Assembly (NCBI GenBank): GCA_002898575.1
Contig: BEHT01000003.1
Span: 1-64,000 of the forward strand
Source: a bacterium HR17
GTDB lineage: Bacteria > Armatimonadota > Fervidibacteria > Fervidibacterales > Fervidibacteraceae
Direction of reading: 5' to 3'
Length of the DNA stretch: 64,000 nucleotides
A program made the translations under genes and the position numbers. Below, piece by piece: positions 55,920-63,100 of this stretch (position 1 is its first letter; each line of letters starts with the position of its first letter). Under the pieces are notes generated by a model. It saw only the letters and a program-made list of their open reading frames with translations, ran no database searches and was not told where the DNA came from.

Positions 55920-55955
55920 CCGTGGGGCAACGCACCACGCGGGAGGTGCTTGGCG

Positions 55956-57179
55956 ATGGCGAAGGCGCAATATCTCGCCGATCTGCGGGTCGGCGACTAT
56001 GTGGACACCATCGTGTTGGTCAAGAGCAAACGGCTTATCCCCTACCGCACCCGTCCCGGCTGCTACTTGGTGCTGACGCTTAAAGACCGGTCGGGGACAG
56101 TGGAAGGACGGGTCTGGGACGACGCCGAACGCATCGACCGCGAGATCGGTGACTGTAAAGTCGTGCGGGTGCGAGGGTTAGTGGAACTTTTCCAGCAAAT
56201 TCCGCAAGTGCGGGTCGTCAGCGTAGAGCCCGTCGCCGAGGGTGAATACGACTGGGCGGATTTACTGCCCCGCACCGAGAAAGAGGTGGAAGCGCTCTGG
56301 GCACGGGTGCAAAGCGCGGTTGACAGCGTGGTCAACCCGCACCTACAAGCGTTGCTGCGGGCGTTCTTTGACGACCCGGTTTTCGCCGAGGCGTTCCAAA
56401 ACGCCCCAGCGTCCCTTTACCTGCACCACAGTTGGGTCGGCGGCTTACTGGAACACACCTGCACCGTGCTGGACTTGGCAGAAGCGCTGTGTCGGCATTA
56501 CCCCGAAATTGACCGCGACCTACTGATCACGGGCGTGCTGTTGCACGATGTCGGGAAGGTGCGCGAATACACTTGGCAACCGGACATTGACCGCACGGAC
56601 GAAGGGCGGTTGTTAGGGCATCTGGTGCTGGGCGACGAAATGGTGGCGGAACGCCTCAAGGGCATCCCCAACTTTCCGGCGGAGCTGGCGATGCGGGTGC
56701 GACACATGCTCATCAGCCATCATGGGACAGGCGAGTGGGGATCACCCCGTCCACCGATGACGCTGGAGGCAGCCGCGTTGCACTTTTTGGAATTCGCCGA
56801 CGCACAACTGCGCAAATTTGCGACGCTTTTGAAAGACCGCCGCGAGCCCGAAAGGGCTTGGACAGGCTATGACCGTGTGTTGGGGCGACGGCTGTTTGCC
56901 GGCTACGGGACAGCGGAAACAGCATCCTCGGCACCGATCCCGATGGAGTCGCAACAGGAAGACGCTCCCATCGCGTTGGCGGAACCAACCGATGCGCCTT
57001 TGCCTGTTCCTGAACCAGTGGCGCTTGATGCCGATGAGTTAGTCGCTGAGGTGCCTGAGATGCCGTCGGACCTTTTGCAGGAGAAAGCGGACATCGTCGC
57101 GGAACCGGAGGAACCGACACGGCGGCGCCGGTTGCGCCGCGCGGAAGCAACGGACGAAGAAGGCAAGTTGCCCTTGTAA
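55956..57179 (+). CDS. YhaM-like 3'-5' exoribonuclease (OB fold plus HD domain)
   Basis: The 407-residue product has an N-terminal OB-fold nucleic-acid-binding part (~15-95; YLVLTLKDRSGTVEGRVWDDAE) and an HD phosphohydrolase domain: HHSWVGGLLEHTCTVLDLAEAL, VLLHDVGKVREY, MLISHHGTGEWGSPRPPMTLEAAALHFLEFADAQLRKF. This is the YhaM/CBF1 layout. It carries an extra ~90-residue acidic and proline-rich tail ending in RRRRLRRAEATDEEGK, which may bind partners or RNA. GGGAGGTGC precedes the ATG. The bpsA leader begins soon after its stop. Confidence 0.87.
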   Translation: MAKAQYLADLRVGDYVDTIVLVKSKRLIPYRTRPGCYLVLTLKDRSGTVEGRVWDDAERIDREIGDCKVVRVRGLVELFQQIPQVRVVSVEPVAEGEYDWADLLPRTEKEVEALWARVQSAVDSVVNPHLQALLRAFFDDPVFAEAFQNAPASLYLHHSWVGGLLEHTCTVLDLAEALCRHYPEIDRDLLITGVLLHDVGKVREYTWQPDIDRTDEGRLLGHLVLGDEMVAERLKGIPNFPAELAMRVRHMLISHHGTGEWGSPRPPMTLEAAALHFLEFADAQLRKFATLLKDRREPERAWTGYDRVLGRRLFAGYGTAETASSAPIPMESQQEDAPIALAEPTDAPLPVPEPVALDADELVAEVPEMPSDLLQEKADIVAEPEEPTRRRRLRRAEATDEEGKLPL

Positions 57180-57226: not shown

Positions 57227-57255
57227 TTGACGGCGGGGACGGGCTGTGTTAACTT
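57227..57255 (+). promoter_or_regulatory. Sigma-70-like promoter of the polyamine operon leader
   Basis: TTGACG at 57227-57232, a 17-base spacer, then TAACTT at 57250-57255. Transcription would begin near 57262, just before the folded leader. The -35 matches at five of six positions and the -10 at four of six. Confidence 0.5.
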
Positions 57256-57277
57256 GTATGCGGACAAACCGGACAAA

Positions 57278-57378
57278 CCGCTTCGCTTTCAGCCGCTCAT
57301 TTCGGCGCGCGAGCGCCTAAGGCTCGTCGGAGCATCTGAGGGTCCCTCGGATGCGAGCCGCCAGTGAAAGCGAAGCGG
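57278..57378 (+). promoter_or_regulatory. Structured leader RNA upstream of bpsA (candidate riboswitch-like element)
   Basis: A closing 14-bp perfect stem pairs CCGCTTCGCTTTCA (57278-57291) with 57365-57378. Inside lie a GGCGC/GCGCC hairpin with a GCGA tetraloop (57304-57317), and an arm formed by GGCTCG (57321-57326) with CGAGCC (57354-57359) topped by an ~10-bp stem GCATCTGAGG...CCTCGGATGC (57332-57354). Together they form a three-way-junction-like fold of about 100 nt between a promoter and a terminator. I match it to no known riboswitch class. Confidence 0.6.
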
Positions 57379-57391
57379 CACGATGGCTGGT

Positions 57392-57427
57392 CGCTCCCCT
57401 GAGCGGCGGGAGCGGGCGGTTTTTTTT
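57392..57427 (+). terminator. Intrinsic terminator/attenuator before bpsA
   Basis: A 7-bp stem CGCTCCC (57392-57398) with GGGAGCG (57408-57414), a 9-base loop, then GGCGG and eight T (57420-57427). It is 53 bases before the bpsA start, too close for another full promoter to be obvious, so read-through must be regulated or partial. Confidence 0.75.
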
Positions 57428-57479
57428 GAGTTTGCACGACGCCAATGGCTAAAACGGAACGCCGTAGAGGAGGACAACC

Positions 57480-58556
57480 ATGGAACGAACCGAAGCCGAA
57501 CGCCGTTTGACGACATTGGTGGACGCTGCTGCCCGCGCGGCGGCGATTCCGTTTTCGCCGCGCGATGTGGAGCGGGCATTAGCGGCGGTCGCGGCGACCG
57601 ATGACCTTTGGGAAGCCGTGCGGTTGAGCCATGTGCCGTTGCGGTTTTTGTGCGCTCTTTGGAACCAGATGCTGAGGGAGGGGCTATTGTCCGCTGAAAA
57701 CGGCCGGCTGCGGTTGACCCAAACGGGTCAGGCGTTCGTGAAGGCGTTGGGGGTCGCCCCTATCCGAGAAGCCGCCTGCGCCTCTTGCGAGGGGCGCGGT
57801 GTGGATTTTCGGCAAATGTTCGGTGCAGCCGCCGACCGTTTTGTAACTATTTGCCAAAATCGCCCCGAAGCCATCCAAGATTACGACCAAGGTTATGTGA
57901 CGGAAACGACGACCTTAGCGCGCATCGCTTTCGCGTGGCAACGCGGGGATTTAGAAGGCAAAGAGATCATCGTGCTCGGCGACGACGATTTGATGAGCGT
58001 TGCCGCGGCGCTGACCGGCGCTCCCAAGCGCGTCGTCGCACTGGACATCGATGAACGGTTGGTCGCCTTCATCAACACCGTCGCAGAACGCGAAGGCTTA
58101 ACGAATTTGCGAGCGGTGCGCCACGACTTGCGGGAACCGTTGCGAGACGAGTGGCTGGGTGCCTTTGACACCTTTCTGTGTGACCCGACAGAAAGTTTCG
58201 TCGGATTCAAAGCCTTTGTGGAGCGCGGGTTACTCTGTTTGAAAGGGGTCGGCAGCGCCGGCTATTTCGGGTTGACCCATGTGGAATCCAGTCTGGACAA
58301 GTGGGCGCGCATTCAACGGCTCCTGTTGGACAGCGGCGCTGTCATCACCGACTTGCGAGACGATTTCAGCGGCTATGTCAACTGGGGCTACATTGAGACG
58401 ATGCGGGGCTGGGCGTGGTTGCCGACGAAAGTCGTGCCGCAACGGGTGTGGTATTGCTCCGCCCTTTACCGCATTGAGTTGTTGATGAAACCGCACTTGG
58501 AAAACCGTCGGTTGGAGGGCAACATCTTTGAGGACGAAGAGGCTGCCACGACCTGA
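57480..58556 (+). CDS. bpsA: N4-bis(aminopropyl)spermidine synthase (branched-chain polyamine synthase)
   Basis: Transfers aminopropyl groups from decarboxylated S-adenosylmethionine to spermidine to give branched polyamines, which stabilise nucleic acids in thermophiles. The 358-residue product has a winged-helix-like N-terminus (~1-95), CASCEGRG (C100, C103) and DQGYVTETTTLAR. The catalytic loop is GDDDLMS (167-173), followed by ALDIDERLV and CDPTES (near 235), matching BpsA/DUF43. TAGAGGAGG precedes the ATG. It is the first gene of the five-gene polyamine operon, 19 bases before pdaD. Confidence 0.92.
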   Translation: MERTEAERRLTTLVDAAARAAAIPFSPRDVERALAAVAATDDLWEAVRLSHVPLRFLCALWNQMLREGLLSAENGRLRLTQTGQAFVKALGVAPIREAACASCEGRGVDFRQMFGAAADRFVTICQNRPEAIQDYDQGYVTETTTLARIAFAWQRGDLEGKEIIVLGDDDLMSVAAALTGAPKRVVALDIDERLVAFINTVAEREGLTNLRAVRHDLREPLRDEWLGAFDTFLCDPTESFVGFKAFVERGLLCLKGVGSAGYFGLTHVESSLDKWARIQRLLLDSGAVITDLRDDFSGYVNWGYIETMRGWAWLPTKVVPQRVWYCSALYRIELLMKPHLENRRLEGNIFEDEEAATT

Positions 58557-58574: not shown

Positions 58575-59033
58575 TTGTTGGAAGTGCGCCGTTTGTATTT
58601 GGTCGCCGGTAAAGCCGAAGGAAACACGCCGTTGAACGCCTTTGATAACGCCTTGCTCGCAGCGGGCATCGGCGATGTGAACCTTATCAAAGTGTCCAGT
58701 ATCGTCCCGCCGGGCGCAGAAATTGTGTCGGACAAGCCCCGCTTGCCGCGCGGCGCACTGGTGCCGTGCGTTTACAGCGAACGCGTCAGCACGACGCCCG
58801 GCGAGCGCATCGCTGTCGCGTTGGCGGTCGGGTTGGCGGACGACGGTTTCGGCGTCGTGATGGAAAGCGAAGGGGAAAGCGCTGAAGAAGCCTGCAAACG
58901 GGCGCTCAGCATGGTGGCGGACGCCTTTCAAGTGCGCGCTCTCCGATTGGCGCGCACTTTATACATCGCAGTGGAGCACCGTGTGGAACGATGTGGCAGC
59001 GTCGTCGCTGCTTGCGTTTACTGGCAACAATAG
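58575..59033 (+). CDS. pdaD: Pyruvoyl-dependent arginine decarboxylase
   Basis: Makes agmatine from arginine. The 152-residue product self-cleaves at the Ser-Ser pair in VSSIVPPGAE (S41-S42), creating the pyruvoyl group. DNALLAAGIGDVNLIK, SERVSTTPGERIAVALAVGL and VMESEGESAEEA are family marks. The start is a TTG at 58575, with GGAGGTG 7 bases before it. Co-transcribed with bpsA and speD. Confidence 0.92.
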   Translation: MLEVRRLYLVAGKAEGNTPLNAFDNALLAAGIGDVNLIKVSSIVPPGAEIVSDKPRLPRGALVPCVYSERVSTTPGERIAVALAVGLADDGFGVVMESEGESAEEACKRALSMVADAFQVRALRLARTLYIAVEHRVERCGSVVAACVYWQQ

Positions 59034-59138
59034 CGCAACTTTAGGGGCATTGCGGAGTCTGAGATTTAGGCTCGGTGTGCACTGACGCACACAGCAGCGG
59101 GCATCGCCCGCATCAATCCCAAGAAGGAGGTGTTGGCG

Positions 59139-59558
59139 ATGCGCATGACGCAGGAGGTGACCATGGGGCGCACCAACGACGAGATGGAAAGCGCGATGGT
59201 CGCCCCCGCCCTGCGCCGGGGCGTGGGGAAACACTTGATCGCCGAGTGCTGGGAATGCAACGACCGCATCTTTTCCGCGACGGCAGTAAGGGAAGCCTTG
59301 GAGGAAGCAGTGCAAGCGAGCGGCGCGACGCTTCTTCGGCTCATCGTCCACACCTTTGAACCTTACGGCGTCAGCGCCGTCGCCATCGTCTCCGAAAGCC
59401 ACCTGTTTATCCACACTTGGCCGGAGATGCGCTACATCGCTGTAGATGTGTTCACCTGCGGTGACACTTTTCCCGAGCGCGCGCTAGAGGTCATTCGGGA
59501 GCATTTTGAACCTCGGCGCCTCAAGGTGCTGGAGTTGGAACGCGGCATTTGGCCGTGA
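59139..59558 (+). CDS. speD: S-adenosylmethionine decarboxylase (pyruvoyl, prokaryotic type)
   Basis: Makes the aminopropyl donor for SpeE and BpsA. The 139-residue proenzyme has the cleavage motif SESHLFIHTWPE (cut before Ser87), GKHLIAECWEC and VFTCGD with the catalytic Cys107. AAGGAGGTG stands before ATG at 59139; a second ATG at 59163 also has GGAGGTGACC, so two starts are possible, giving a polar N-terminal extension of eight residues or not. About 105 bases separate it from pdaD, with no clear terminator. Confidence 0.94.
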   Translation: MRMTQEVTMGRTNDEMESAMVAPALRRGVGKHLIAECWECNDRIFSATAVREALEEAVQASGATLLRLIVHTFEPYGVSAVAIVSESHLFIHTWPEMRYIAVDVFTCGDTFPERALEVIREHFEPRRLKVLELERGIWP

Positions 59559-59614
59559 GACGCTGACTCTCCCGAACGCACCACTCTCCGCGGTGAACCT
59601 TGGGGTGTCTAACG

Positions 59615-60463
59615 GTGAGCGACGAGTTCTTCACGGAAGAGCAAACCGAAGGCGTCCACTTGCGTCTGCGGGTGCGGCAATGGCTGCTGCGGCGGCGCAC
59701 CGCCTATCAGGACCTCGTCATCGCTGAAACGACCGAGCTGGGGCGGCTGCTGGCGCTGGACGGCAAGGTCATGCTGACGGAAGCCGACGAGGCGTTTTAC
59801 CACGAAATGCTCGTCCATCCAGCCCTCATCAGTCTGGACGAACCCCGCACGGTTGCTGTCATCGGTGGCGGCGACGGGGGAACGGTGCGGGAAGTGCTGC
59901 GCCACCCCAGCGTCCGAGAAGTTTTTTGGGTGGAGATTGACGCGGAAGTGATGGCGGCATGCCGTCAATGGCTGCCGTCGGTGCACCGAGGCGTTTTTGA
60001 CGACCCAAGGGTTCGCATTGTCGTCGCGCCCGGCGAAGAATGGTTACCGCGGTTCTCGGCGACTTTTGACGCGATTATCGTGGACGGCACCGACCCGATC
60101 GGTCCAGCGCTGCCCCTTTTTGAGCCGCCTTTTTTCCGCACCTGTCAACGGTCGCTCACCTCGCATGGCATTCTGGCGTTGCAATGCGGCACGCCTTTCT
60201 ACTTCCGCGACGAGGTGCGCCGGGTATGGGACAACCTGCGCCAAGTGTTCGCGGAAGTTCGCCTCTACCTCGGTTTCGTGCCGACTTACCCCTCAGGGTT
60301 GTGGACATACGCGATGGCGGGTGCCCGACTGCCTGCGTTGGATGCGACCGAGTTGAGCCGTCGCTGTCAGGAAAGGCAATTGTCCGGATGCCGTTACTAT
60401 GCCCCCCACATTCACCTCGCCAGTTTCGCCCTTCCCCCATTTGTGCAGGAATTGCTCGCATAG
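59615..60463 (+). CDS. speE: Aminopropyltransferase (spermidine synthase family)
   Basis: Transfers the aminopropyl group to an amine acceptor. The 282-residue product has the N-terminal beta domain (YQDLVIAETTELGRLLALDGKVMLTEADEAFYHEML), the GGGDGGTVREVLRH motif and DAIIVDGTDPIGPALPLFEPPFF with the catalytic Asp. Because agmatine is made by the neighbouring PdaD and an agmatinase-like gene follows, the acceptor is probably agmatine, giving N1-aminopropylagmatine as in Thermus. The GTG start at 59615 has TTGGGG upstream. Confidence 0.92.
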   Translation: MSDEFFTEEQTEGVHLRLRVRQWLLRRRTAYQDLVIAETTELGRLLALDGKVMLTEADEAFYHEMLVHPALISLDEPRTVAVIGGGDGGTVREVLRHPSVREVFWVEIDAEVMAACRQWLPSVHRGVFDDPRVRIVVAPGEEWLPRFSATFDAIIVDGTDPIGPALPLFEPPFFRTCQRSLTSHGILALQCGTPFYFRDEVRRVWDNLRQVFAEVRLYLGFVPTYPSGLWTYAMAGARLPALDATELSRRCQERQLSGCRYYAPHIHLASFALPPFVQELLA

Positions 60464-60536: not shown

Positions 60537-61340
60537 ATGCGGTTTTTAGAAGCCGGCGATGTCGCCACCGCACAAGTGGTCATTATCGGCGCACCCTTTG
60601 AGGGAGCGTCCAGTTATCGCAAGGGGAGCGCGCTCGGTCCGCTCGCTATCCGCCGAGCGTCGCAAAGCATTGAGAGTTTCAGCGCTGTTTTTCGCACTGA
60701 CCTGCGGGATGTGGCGTTGGGTGACGCTGGCGATATGGCGCTCAGCGACCGTGTAGAAGATGCCCTCGCCCAGATCGCTGACGCGGTAGAAACTCACCTG
60801 CAAGCGGGGCGCCGCACCGTTTTGTTGGGCGGCGACCACAGCGTTACCATCGGCGCCGTTGCCGGTGTGCGGCGTCTGTTTCCGGACATTCAAGTGGTGG
60901 TCTTGGACGCCCATTCCGACTGGCGGGACAGTTACGACGGCAGCCGCTATTCGCACGCCTGCACGGTGCGGCGCCTCTGGGAGATGACCGACGGGCGCGT
61001 GTGGGTCGTCGGGGCACGATCGTTTGTCGGCAACGAAGACTGGAGCCGGTATGTCGGTCTCGAGGAGGTGCTGCAAAAGTTAGACCCGCACCGTCCCACT
61101 TACTTGAGCGTTGACTTGGACGCCTTTGACCCCAGCCTGTGCCCCGGCGTGGGCAACCCGGAGCCGGGCGGGTTGCGCTACGAGCAAGCCATCGCGTTGT
61201 TGTGCGGGCTGCGAGCGGTGTCGGTCATCGGGGTAGATGTTGTTGAACTGCACCCGCCTTACGACCCCTCTGAAACCACCGCAATCACCGCCGCCAAGTT
61301 GGTGCAGGAGAGCATTTTGGCTTTTTGGGCGCCACGATAA
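60537..61340 (+). CDS. speB: Agmatinase / N1-aminopropylagmatine ureohydrolase
   Basis: Binuclear manganese enzyme of the arginase fold. The 267-residue product has GGDHSVTIG (His101), LDAHSDWRD (D124, H126, D128), a further His in SHACTVRR, and LSVDLDAFDPSLCPG with two more Asp ligands. Next to speE it would release urea from aminopropylagmatine to give spermidine, which BpsA then branches. GGGTGATGTGGG precedes the ATG. Last gene of the operon. Confidence 0.92.
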   Translation: MRFLEAGDVATAQVVIIGAPFEGASSYRKGSALGPLAIRRASQSIESFSAVFRTDLRDVALGDAGDMALSDRVEDALAQIADAVETHLQAGRRTVLLGGDHSVTIGAVAGVRRLFPDIQVVVLDAHSDWRDSYDGSRYSHACTVRRLWEMTDGRVWVVGARSFVGNEDWSRYVGLEEVLQKLDPHRPTYLSVDLDAFDPSLCPGVGNPEPGGLRYEQAIALLCGLRAVSVIGVDVVELHPPYDPSETTAITAAKLVQESILAFWAPR

Positions 61341-61409: not shown

Positions 61410-61486
61410 TTCCGCCAGCCCACGGCGCCCGCTGACAGGCAAGGCAGTATGTGAGAAGCCGTTTGCGTTACAGGAGGCGATGTCGC

Positions 61487-63100
61487 TTGCCACGCCCAGA
61501 ACGCGTTTTCCTTTACGACACGACATTGCGTGACGGGGCTCAAGCCGAAGGCGTTAATTTCTCGCTGGAGGACAAGATGAAAATCGCCCGCAAACTGGAC
61601 GAGTTTGGCGTTCACTACATTGAGGCAGGTTGGCCGGGAAGCAACCCCAAAGACGAAGAGTTTTTCCGCTGGGCGCGGGACGCAGAATGGCAGCAGGCGA
61701 AATTGGTCGCTTTTTCCATGACCCGGCGCAAAGGCATTTTGGCGGAGGACGACACCAACATCCGCACGCTATTGGAATGCGGCACGCCGGTCGTCGCCAT
61801 TGTCGGCAAAAGTTGGGATTTGCATGTCACCGAAGCGTTGAACGCCTCGCTGGACGAAAACCTGCGCATGATTGAAGACACTGTTCGGCTCGCCAAACGC
61901 GTCGGCAAAGAGGTCGTTTACGACGCCGAACATTTTTTTGACGGCTACAAGCACAACCCCACTTATGCGGTGGAGACCATTTTGGCGGCGCAAGAGGCAG
62001 GGGCGGATTGGATCGTCTTTTGCGACACCAACGGGGGGAGCCTGCCCCACGAGGTGGAACGCGTCCTCGCCGAGGTCGCACCCCGATTGCGGGTGCCGTT
62101 CGGCATCCACACGCACAACGACAGCGACGCGGCTGTCGCTAACGCCCTTGTGGCAGTTTTGCAAGGCGCGACGCAGGTGCAAGGCACCATCAACGGCATC
62201 GGCGAGCGGGCTGGCAATTGCAATTTGATCTCGGTCATTGCTAACTTGGAACTGAAGTTGGGCGTCCATTGCGTCGGACGGGAGCGATTGCAACGGTTGG
62301 CGGAACTCAGTTACTTCGTCAGCGAGGTCGCTAACCTTGTCCCCAACGACAAACAACCCTTCGTCGGCAAGAGCGTGTTCGCCCACAAAGGCGGCATGCA
62401 CAGCGACGCCGTGATGAAGCGACCGGAAACTTACGAACACATTCCGCCCGATTGGGTCGGCAATAAACGGCGCATTTTGGTCTCCGAATTGGCGGGGCGT
62501 GCCGCCGTCGTCGCCAAAGCCGCTGAGTTCGGCATCCACTTGGACAAACGCTCGCCTGAGGTCACCCACATCATCAACGAGATCAAACGCAAAGAACGAA
62601 CAGGTTACGAATATGAAGGTGCCGACGCGTCGTTGGAGTTGCTCATCCGCAAGCACCTGGGCTTGCGCCGCAAGTTTTTTGAGTTGGTCAATTTCACCGT
62701 GCTCGTCACGCACCGCAACGGAGACATCACCGCAGAGGCGAAAGTCAAGGTGCGAGTGGGCGATGAGGAATTGGTGACGGCGGCGGAGGGAAACGGTCCT
62801 GTCCACGCTTTGGATCTGGCGTTGCGCAAAGCCTTGGAAAGCGTCTATCCCGAACTGAAAAGTGTGCGCTTAACCGATTACAAGGTGCGGGTCGTTAACA
62901 GCGATGCCGCGACCGGGGCACGGGTGCGAGTGCTCATTGAATCCCGCGACGAAACAGGGGCGTGGACAACGATCGGCGTTTCCCCGAACATCATTGAGGC
63001 AAGCCTGATCGCTTTGCTGGACAGTCTGGAGTATGGACTGTTGCGAAAACTGGGCGCTCCGGTTTTGTCTATGCCTGCGGCGACACCCGCATCCCAATAA
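61487..63100 (+). CDS. cimA: (R)-citramalate synthase (or 2-isopropylmalate synthase-like)
   Basis: Condenses pyruvate and acetyl-CoA in the threonine-independent isoleucine route. The 537-residue product starts with YDTTLRDGAQAEGVNFS and has GWPGSNPKDEEFF, FCDTNGGSLPHEV, HTHNDSDAAVANALVAV (metal His), GIGERAGNCNLISVIANLELK, HKGGMHSDAVMK, and a C-terminal LeuA dimer/allosteric domain. These fit CimA better than LeuA. The start is probably TTG at 61487, because AGGAGG lies 9 bases before it; no ATG is near. 30 bases to the next gene. Confidence 0.9.
   Translation: MPRPERVFLYDTTLRDGAQAEGVNFSLEDKMKIARKLDEFGVHYIEAGWPGSNPKDEEFFRWARDAEWQQAKLVAFSMTRRKGILAEDDTNIRTLLECGTPVVAIVGKSWDLHVTEALNASLDENLRMIEDTVRLAKRVGKEVVYDAEHFFDGYKHNPTYAVETILAAQEAGADWIVFCDTNGGSLPHEVERVLAEVAPRLRVPFGIHTHNDSDAAVANALVAVLQGATQVQGTINGIGERAGNCNLISVIANLELKLGVHCVGRERLQRLAELSYFVSEVANLVPNDKQPFVGKSVFAHKGGMHSDAVMKRPETYEHIPPDWVGNKRRILVSELAGRAAVVAKAAEFGIHLDKRSPEVTHIINEIKRKERTGYEYEGADASLELLIRKHLGLRRKFFELVNFTVLVTHRNGDITAEAKVKVRVGDEELVTAAEGNGPVHALDLALRKALESVYPELKSVRLTDYKVRVVNSDAATGARVRVLIESRDETGAWTTIGVSPNIIEASLIALLDSLEYGLLRKLGAPVLSMPAATPASQ

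What the first reader, a model, noticed from the sequence alone, without database searches (positions are those of the whole stretch)
57227..57479. Promoter, folded RNA and terminator ahead of the polyamine operon: candidate new riboswitch or attenuator
A 14-bp perfect closing stem, a GNRA-capped hairpin and a long second arm form a compact ~100-nt fold placed between a sigma-70-like promoter and a strong terminator, 53 bases before bpsA. This is the standard layout of a ligand-controlled attenuator. Polyamine, agmatine or S-adenosylmethionine derivatives are natural ligands given the genes controlled. I match it to no known class.
Basis: partly seen in the sequence, partly recalled or inferred. 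Interest (0 to 1): 0.65.

Follow-up and report, generated by a model that had tools for sequence, protein, structure and literature searches.

The report
Conserved RNA attenuator before polyamine operon
Ahead of genes that make heat-protecting branched polyamines, a small group of Armatimonadota bacteria carries a conserved RNA element that can probably stop transcription early; it fits no described RNA family, and what it senses is still unknown.

Summary
Between a promoter-like site and bpsA (57480) lies a 14-bp closing stem (P1, 57278-57291 / 57365-57378), inner hairpins and a U-tract terminator (57392-57427). The leader recurs before bpsA in both other genomes of the order that have bpsA (G003/SKYB36, G004/SKYB128; BpsA 57-60% identical). 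There 10 of 14 P1 pairs change on both sides, while GCCGCTCA (8/8) and the terminator hairpin (20/22) stay fixed. In G004 the upstream gene is divergent, so the terminator acts on this operon's own transcript. No Rfam family matches; the element occurs once per genome, is not a mobile repeat, and was not found elsewhere (about 85,000 species, exact pattern; 291 phylum genomes, covariance model). Best reading: a transcription attenuator in which the bulged GCCGCTCA competes for the terminator loop, probably reporting polyamine status. Ligand and sign are not shown. The inner domain, where a classical aptamer would sit, is not conserved. The pseudoknot itself is invariant, so it rests on complementarity, not covariation.

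The parts
57227..57255 (+). promoter-like site TTGACG-17-TAACTT
   Evidence: Weak alone (8/12) and not listed by the scan; same place and spacing in G004 (TTAACA-17-TATAAT) and G003 (TTGACA-17-TAAACT)
57278..57291 (+). P1 5' strand (a)
   Evidence: 14/14 pairs with 57365-57378; 10 of 14 pairs show two-sided changes across three genomes
57292..57299 (+). bulge element b GCCGCTCA, invariant in three genomes, complementary to the terminator loop
57304..57317 (+). GNRA-capped hairpin GGCGC-GCGA-GCGCC (present only in this genome)
57321..57359 (+). P2 (GGCTC/GAGCC) with long apical hairpin 57332-57354; P2 has counterparts in G003 (same sequence) and G004 (different sequence)
57365..57378 (+). P1 3' strand (a')
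57392..57398 (+). terminator stem 5' arm (c) CGCTCCC
57400..57407 (+). terminator loop b' TGAGCGGC, complementary to b
57408..57414 (+). terminator stem 3' arm (c') GGGAGCG
57420..57427 (+). U-tract of the terminator (T8)
57480..58556 (+). bpsA, branched-chain polyamine synthase
   Evidence: Pfam PF01861 BpsA_C E 4e-92
58575..59033 (+). pdaD, pyruvoyl-dependent arginine decarboxylase
   Evidence: TIGR00286 above cutoff
59130..59558 (+). speD/speH, S-adenosylmethionine decarboxylase
   Evidence: TIGR03330 above cutoff
59600..60463 (+). speE, spermidine synthase
   Evidence: TIGR00417 above cutoff
60537..61340 (+). speB, agmatinase
   Evidence: TIGR01230 above cutoff

Best explanation
This is the 5' leader of the bpsA-pdaD-speD-speE(-speB) polyamine operon and works as a cis-acting transcription attenuator. 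RNA polymerase starts about 16-20 nt before P1 and makes a long hairpin (P1, P2 and apical arms) with GCCGCTCA held open in a bulge next to P1. The polymerase then makes the left arm and loop of a terminator hairpin. The loop TGAGCGGC can pair with the waiting bulge (8 bp), which would block or remodel the terminator and allow read-through. If the loop does not pair, the hairpin closes and transcription stops at the U-tract before bpsA. The choice is most likely set by a polyamine-pathway metabolite (product feedback, more polyamine giving more termination) that acts on the pseudoknot/terminator core. Shown here: the parts, their conservation, P1 covariation, and that the terminator acts on this operon's transcript. 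Inferred: mutually exclusive pairing, the signal, and its sign.
For: Orthologous leaders lie before bpsA in G003 and G004, with the same operon downstream. P1: 14/14, 13/14 and 11/14 pairs at matching positions, with 10 of 14 pairs changed on both sides. All five measures exceed 500 of 500 shuffles and every slid register. P1 strands of one genome do not pair well with those of another (4-9 of 14). b is invariant 8/8 and c-b'-c' 20/22, against 7/59 in a, a', linker and leader start. The terminator loop is as conserved as its stem, which a plain terminator does not need. The b:b' duplex (-14.5 kcal/mol) and the terminator hairpin (-9.6 to -12.5) are close in energy. In G004 the upstream gene is divergent, so the terminator is not that gene's. 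The operon encodes arginine decarboxylase, agmatinase, SAM decarboxylase, spermidine synthase and BpsA.
Against: b:b' never varies, so it has no covariation support. An 8-bp pairing inside a 9-nt loop could also form as a loop-bulge kiss with the terminator stem intact, which would reverse the logic. Only three sequences exist. The inner domain is poorly conserved, unlike a classical aptamer. No ligand, termination or expression data.
Confidence: 0.55

Rival explanations
1. A protein (an RNA-binding antiterminator or repressor) recognises the conserved b / terminator-hairpin sequence and decides between termination and read-through. The RNA itself senses nothing.
For: Sequence, not only structure, is conserved in c-b'-c' (20/22), as expected of a binding site. 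The inner fold is free to vary.
Against: No obvious regulator gene was recognised beside the operon in the stretch examined. The site occurs once per genome.
Confidence: 0.17
2. The leader is a physical sensor without a specific pocket: temperature or bulk polyamine concentration shifts the balance between the P1/terminator and b:b' states.
For: The bacteria are probably thermophiles (inferred from the presence of BpsA and GC-rich stems), and branched polyamines serve heat adaptation (PMC12979288). In this genome the two states are nearly equal in computed energy at 37 and 70 C. No conserved aptamer lies within P1.
Against: Exact sequence conservation of b and the terminator hairpin exceeds what a melting device needs. 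The balance differs among the three genomes (0.6, 4.1 and 8.2 kcal/mol at 37 C, nested model).
Confidence: 0.15
3. It is just a partial terminator that lowers operon expression constitutively; the b/b' complementarity is accidental.
For: No regulation has been measured. Leader terminators can be leaky.
Against: b and the loop are conserved 8/8 in three genera where P1 sequence has turned over almost completely yet kept its pairing. An 8-nt match to a loop in a leader of about 130 nt is expected about 0.002 times by chance (own estimate).
Confidence: 0.1
4. Leader-peptide attenuation: translation of a short Arg-rich ORF (57258-57320, MRTNRTNRFAFSRSFRRASA) senses arginine, the substrate of PdaD.
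For: 6 of 20 codons are Arg in this genome.
Against: The ATG lies 3 nt after the -10 box, before the expected start of transcription, and has no evident ribosome site. Neither G003 nor G004 has a counterpart.
Confidence: 0.02

Closest known systems
HMP-PP (thiS motif) riboswitch, terminator-embedded aptamer (PMC6478431)
   Same: Terminator hairpin with an unusually conserved loop; an alternative pseudoknotted state excludes the full terminator; sits before biosynthesis genes.
   Different: No Rfam match. Here the partner is a bulge in a long separate upstream hairpin about 100 nt away, with a covarying P1; genes are for polyamines, not thiamin.
Spermidine riboswitch, a SAM-I variant (PMC10853860)
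   Same: Transcription-terminating leader before polyamine biosynthesis genes.
   Different: That class has the SAM-I four-stem aptamer and 13 known Gram-positive members. No SAM-family match here, and the architecture is different.
odc1 motif (PMC8632094)
   Same: Leader RNA with a pseudoknot into a hairpin loop, before a polyamine gene.
   Different: Alphaproteobacterial and includes a uORF; its pseudoknot strand lies near the 5' terminus, outside the stem. Here there is no conserved uORF and a terminator is part of the pairing.
H-type pseudoknot or kissing-loop riboswitches with terminator platforms (preQ1, SAM-II, fluoride, guanidine-IV; from own knowledge)
   Same: Pairing of an upstream loop with a downstream segment that overlaps the terminator.
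   Different: No Rfam match to any of them; conserved nucleotides differ.

Membership tests
Transcription attenuator (cis-acting leader with intrinsic terminator) | Promoter, structured leader and U-tract terminator upstream of the operon's first gene, terminator acting on the operon's own transcript | tested here: met
   Same order of parts in three genomes; upstream gene divergent in G004
Transcription attenuator (cis-acting leader with intrinsic terminator) | Alternative structure that competes with the terminator | tested here: inconclusive
   8-bp b:b' complementarity, invariant, energies comparable; exclusivity not provable by sequence
Riboswitch (metabolite-binding) | Conserved aptamer that binds a small molecule | not testable with these tools
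   Inner domain not conserved; conserved core is b plus terminator hairpin; no binding data
Spermidine riboswitch (SAM-I variant) | SAM-I four-stem architecture and core sequence | tested here: not met
   No Rfam SAM match even at E up to 10; covarying P1 with bulge and P2 instead
HMP-PP riboswitch | Match to a described family model / association with thiamin genes | tested here: not met
   No Rfam match; polyamine genes
HMP-PP riboswitch | Terminator loop abnormally conserved, with alternative pseudoknot | tested here: met
   Loop invariant in three genomes and complementary to an upstream bulge
Leader-peptide attenuator | Conserved translated leader ORF rich in a regulatory codon | tested here: not met
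   Only in this genome, ATG before the expected start of transcription
Mobile palindromic repeat | Many copies scattered in the genome | tested here: not met
   Single copy in G000, G003 and G004

The most novel reading that the evidence does not exclude
A new riboswitch class in one order of Armatimonadota: the bulge-terminator-loop pseudoknot itself forms the pocket for a polyamine-pathway metabolite (spermidine, N4-bis(aminopropyl)spermidine, decarboxylated SAM or agmatine) and controls branched-chain polyamine synthesis.
Probability: 0.33. Interest if true: 0.75.

Novelty: new variant of a known kind. Interest (0 to 1): 0.52.

Why it matters
The only natural polyamine riboswitch class my literature search found as well supported is a rare SAM-I variant (PMC10853860), and the 2026 review of branched-chain polyamines does not mention riboswitches in its main text (PMC12979288). 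A conserved attenuator before bpsA gives a direct, testable handle on how such bacteria control these heat-protecting molecules. Its conservation lies in a terminator loop and a matching bulge, an arrangement that aptamer-centred searches can easily file as a plain terminator.

Tried and rejected
Rfam: no family at gathering threshold in the window; near the three leaders only two weak chance matches. Pattern scan of about 85,000 species: 23 hits, of which only two (L026 = G004, L038 = G003) have the matching stem and terminator; the rest look like chance matches, judged by eye. Viral contigs: two chance hits. In the phylum pattern search, G008 hits are an unrelated palindromic repeat. Covariance model over 291 genomes: beyond the three, only weak hits (E 0.004-0.06 per genome, about what 291 genomes give) with no matching layout. 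An extended antiterminator (P1 5' strand with the terminator 3' arm) looks good in the window genome (p 0.017) but not in G004 or G003 (p 0.57, 0.88), so it is not taken as conserved. Leader peptide rejected. Terminator of the upstream gene rejected, because that gene is divergent in G004. Same-genus genomes G001 and G002 are 61-63% complete and lack bpsA and pdaD, so they neither support nor refute.

Full report
What is there. The reported stretch lies in a 300-bp gap between an HD/OB-fold gene (55950-57179) and bpsA (57480-58556). Downstream, on the same strand, follow pdaD, speD, speE and speB, then a citramalate synthase gene; Pfam and NCBIfam support each name. The leader has a promoter-like site (57227-57255), a perfect 14-bp stem P1 (57278-57291 / 57365-57378), inner hairpins, and a hairpin with T8 (57392-57427) 52 bases before the ATG. 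The expected transcript folds better than all 200 shuffles (z -3.19).

Relatives. BpsA is found in 7 of 61 related genomes, counting one weak match in G022; in the order it is in G000, G003 and G004. Both G003 and G004 carry the leader in front of bpsA, followed by pdaD, speD and speE, and in G003 also speB. By matching contig lengths and titles they appear to be SKYB36 and SKYB128, Armatimonadetes MAGs. Their BpsA proteins are 57-60% identical to the window's. The other two genomes of the order are about 60% complete and lack bpsA and pdaD. More distant bpsA genes of the phylum (G017, G030, G043) do not have this leader.

Covariation. Taking the 14 bases before GCCGCTCA and the best-matching 14 bases downstream, the pairs number 14/14, 13/14 and 11/14. 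The downstream strand always lies 11-15 nt before the terminator. In an in-register alignment from which the inner loop was cut out, 10 of 14 P1 pairs change on both sides. No shuffle out of 500 reached any of the five measures, and sliding the register by 1-3 columns destroys the pairing. That alignment was laid out around P1, so it leans towards it; the cross-pairing control does not (4-9 of 14 between genomes). P1 is therefore very probably an RNA stem under selection.

The conserved core. While P1 turned over, two sequences did not: GCCGCTCA directly inside P1 (8/8) and the terminator hairpin CTYCCCTGAGCGGCGGGAGCRG (20/22). The other leader segments (a, a', linker, leader start) keep only 7 of 59 positions. 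The hairpin's loop TGAGCGGC is the exact complement of GCCGCTCA. A plain terminator does not need a conserved loop; the HMP-PP riboswitch was recognised in part by this oddity (PMC6478431). P2 next to the bulge is present in all three computed folds with the bulge left open, GGCTC/GAGCC in G000 and G003 and a different sequence in G004. Everything above P2 varies, and the GNRA hairpin is unique to this genome.

Mechanism. In G004 the neighbouring upstream gene points away, so the terminator can only act on the transcript that leads into bpsA. The favoured model is co-transcriptional competition. The bulge waits in the finished upstream hairpin; once the terminator loop emerges, either it pairs with the bulge (read-through) or the terminator closes (stop). 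Computed energies are close: b:b' duplex -14.5, terminator hairpin -9.6 to -12.5 kcal/mol at 37 C (nested models only, no pseudoknot energy). The opposite sign cannot be excluded: a 9-nt loop may pair with the bulge while its stem stays closed, which would stabilise termination. Product feedback by polyamines is assumed from the operon's function, not shown.

What it is not. No Rfam family, SAM-I included, matches. The known spermidine riboswitch is a SAM-I variant with four stems in Gram-positive bacteria (PMC10853860). Leader-peptide control fails in the relatives. The element is single-copy. A search of open-access papers for polyamine, spermidine or agmatine riboswitches found only the SAM-I variant as a class, and the terms 'riboswitch', 'Armatimonad' and 'Fervidibact' do not occur in the main text of the 2026 branched-polyamine review.

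Limits.

Noticed in passing
L012 about 1414-1440, L013 about 1410-1437, L014 (reverse strand, upstream of bpsA): In another family of the phylum (G043, G017, G030) the bpsA gene has no such RNA but a near-identical palindrome AGGGATACCCCTNTGGGGTATCCCT just after the -10 box. It resembles a CsoR-type operator (from memory), so a protein repressor may control the same gene there.
   Followed up: partly
window 57258-57320: Arg-rich short ORF MRTNRTNRFAFSRSFRRASA overlapping the leader; not conserved and starts before the expected transcription start.
   Followed up: yes
G008:C1:14121-14232 and G008:C19:29312-29426: A palindromic repeat with GCCGCTCA...TGAGCGGC ends, matching on both strands, in an unrelated genome of the phylum; looks like a repeat family of its own.
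   Followed up: no
window 61451-63100: A citramalate synthase gene (TIGR00977) follows speB on the same strand here and in G003, so it may belong to the same transcription unit.
   Followed up: partly
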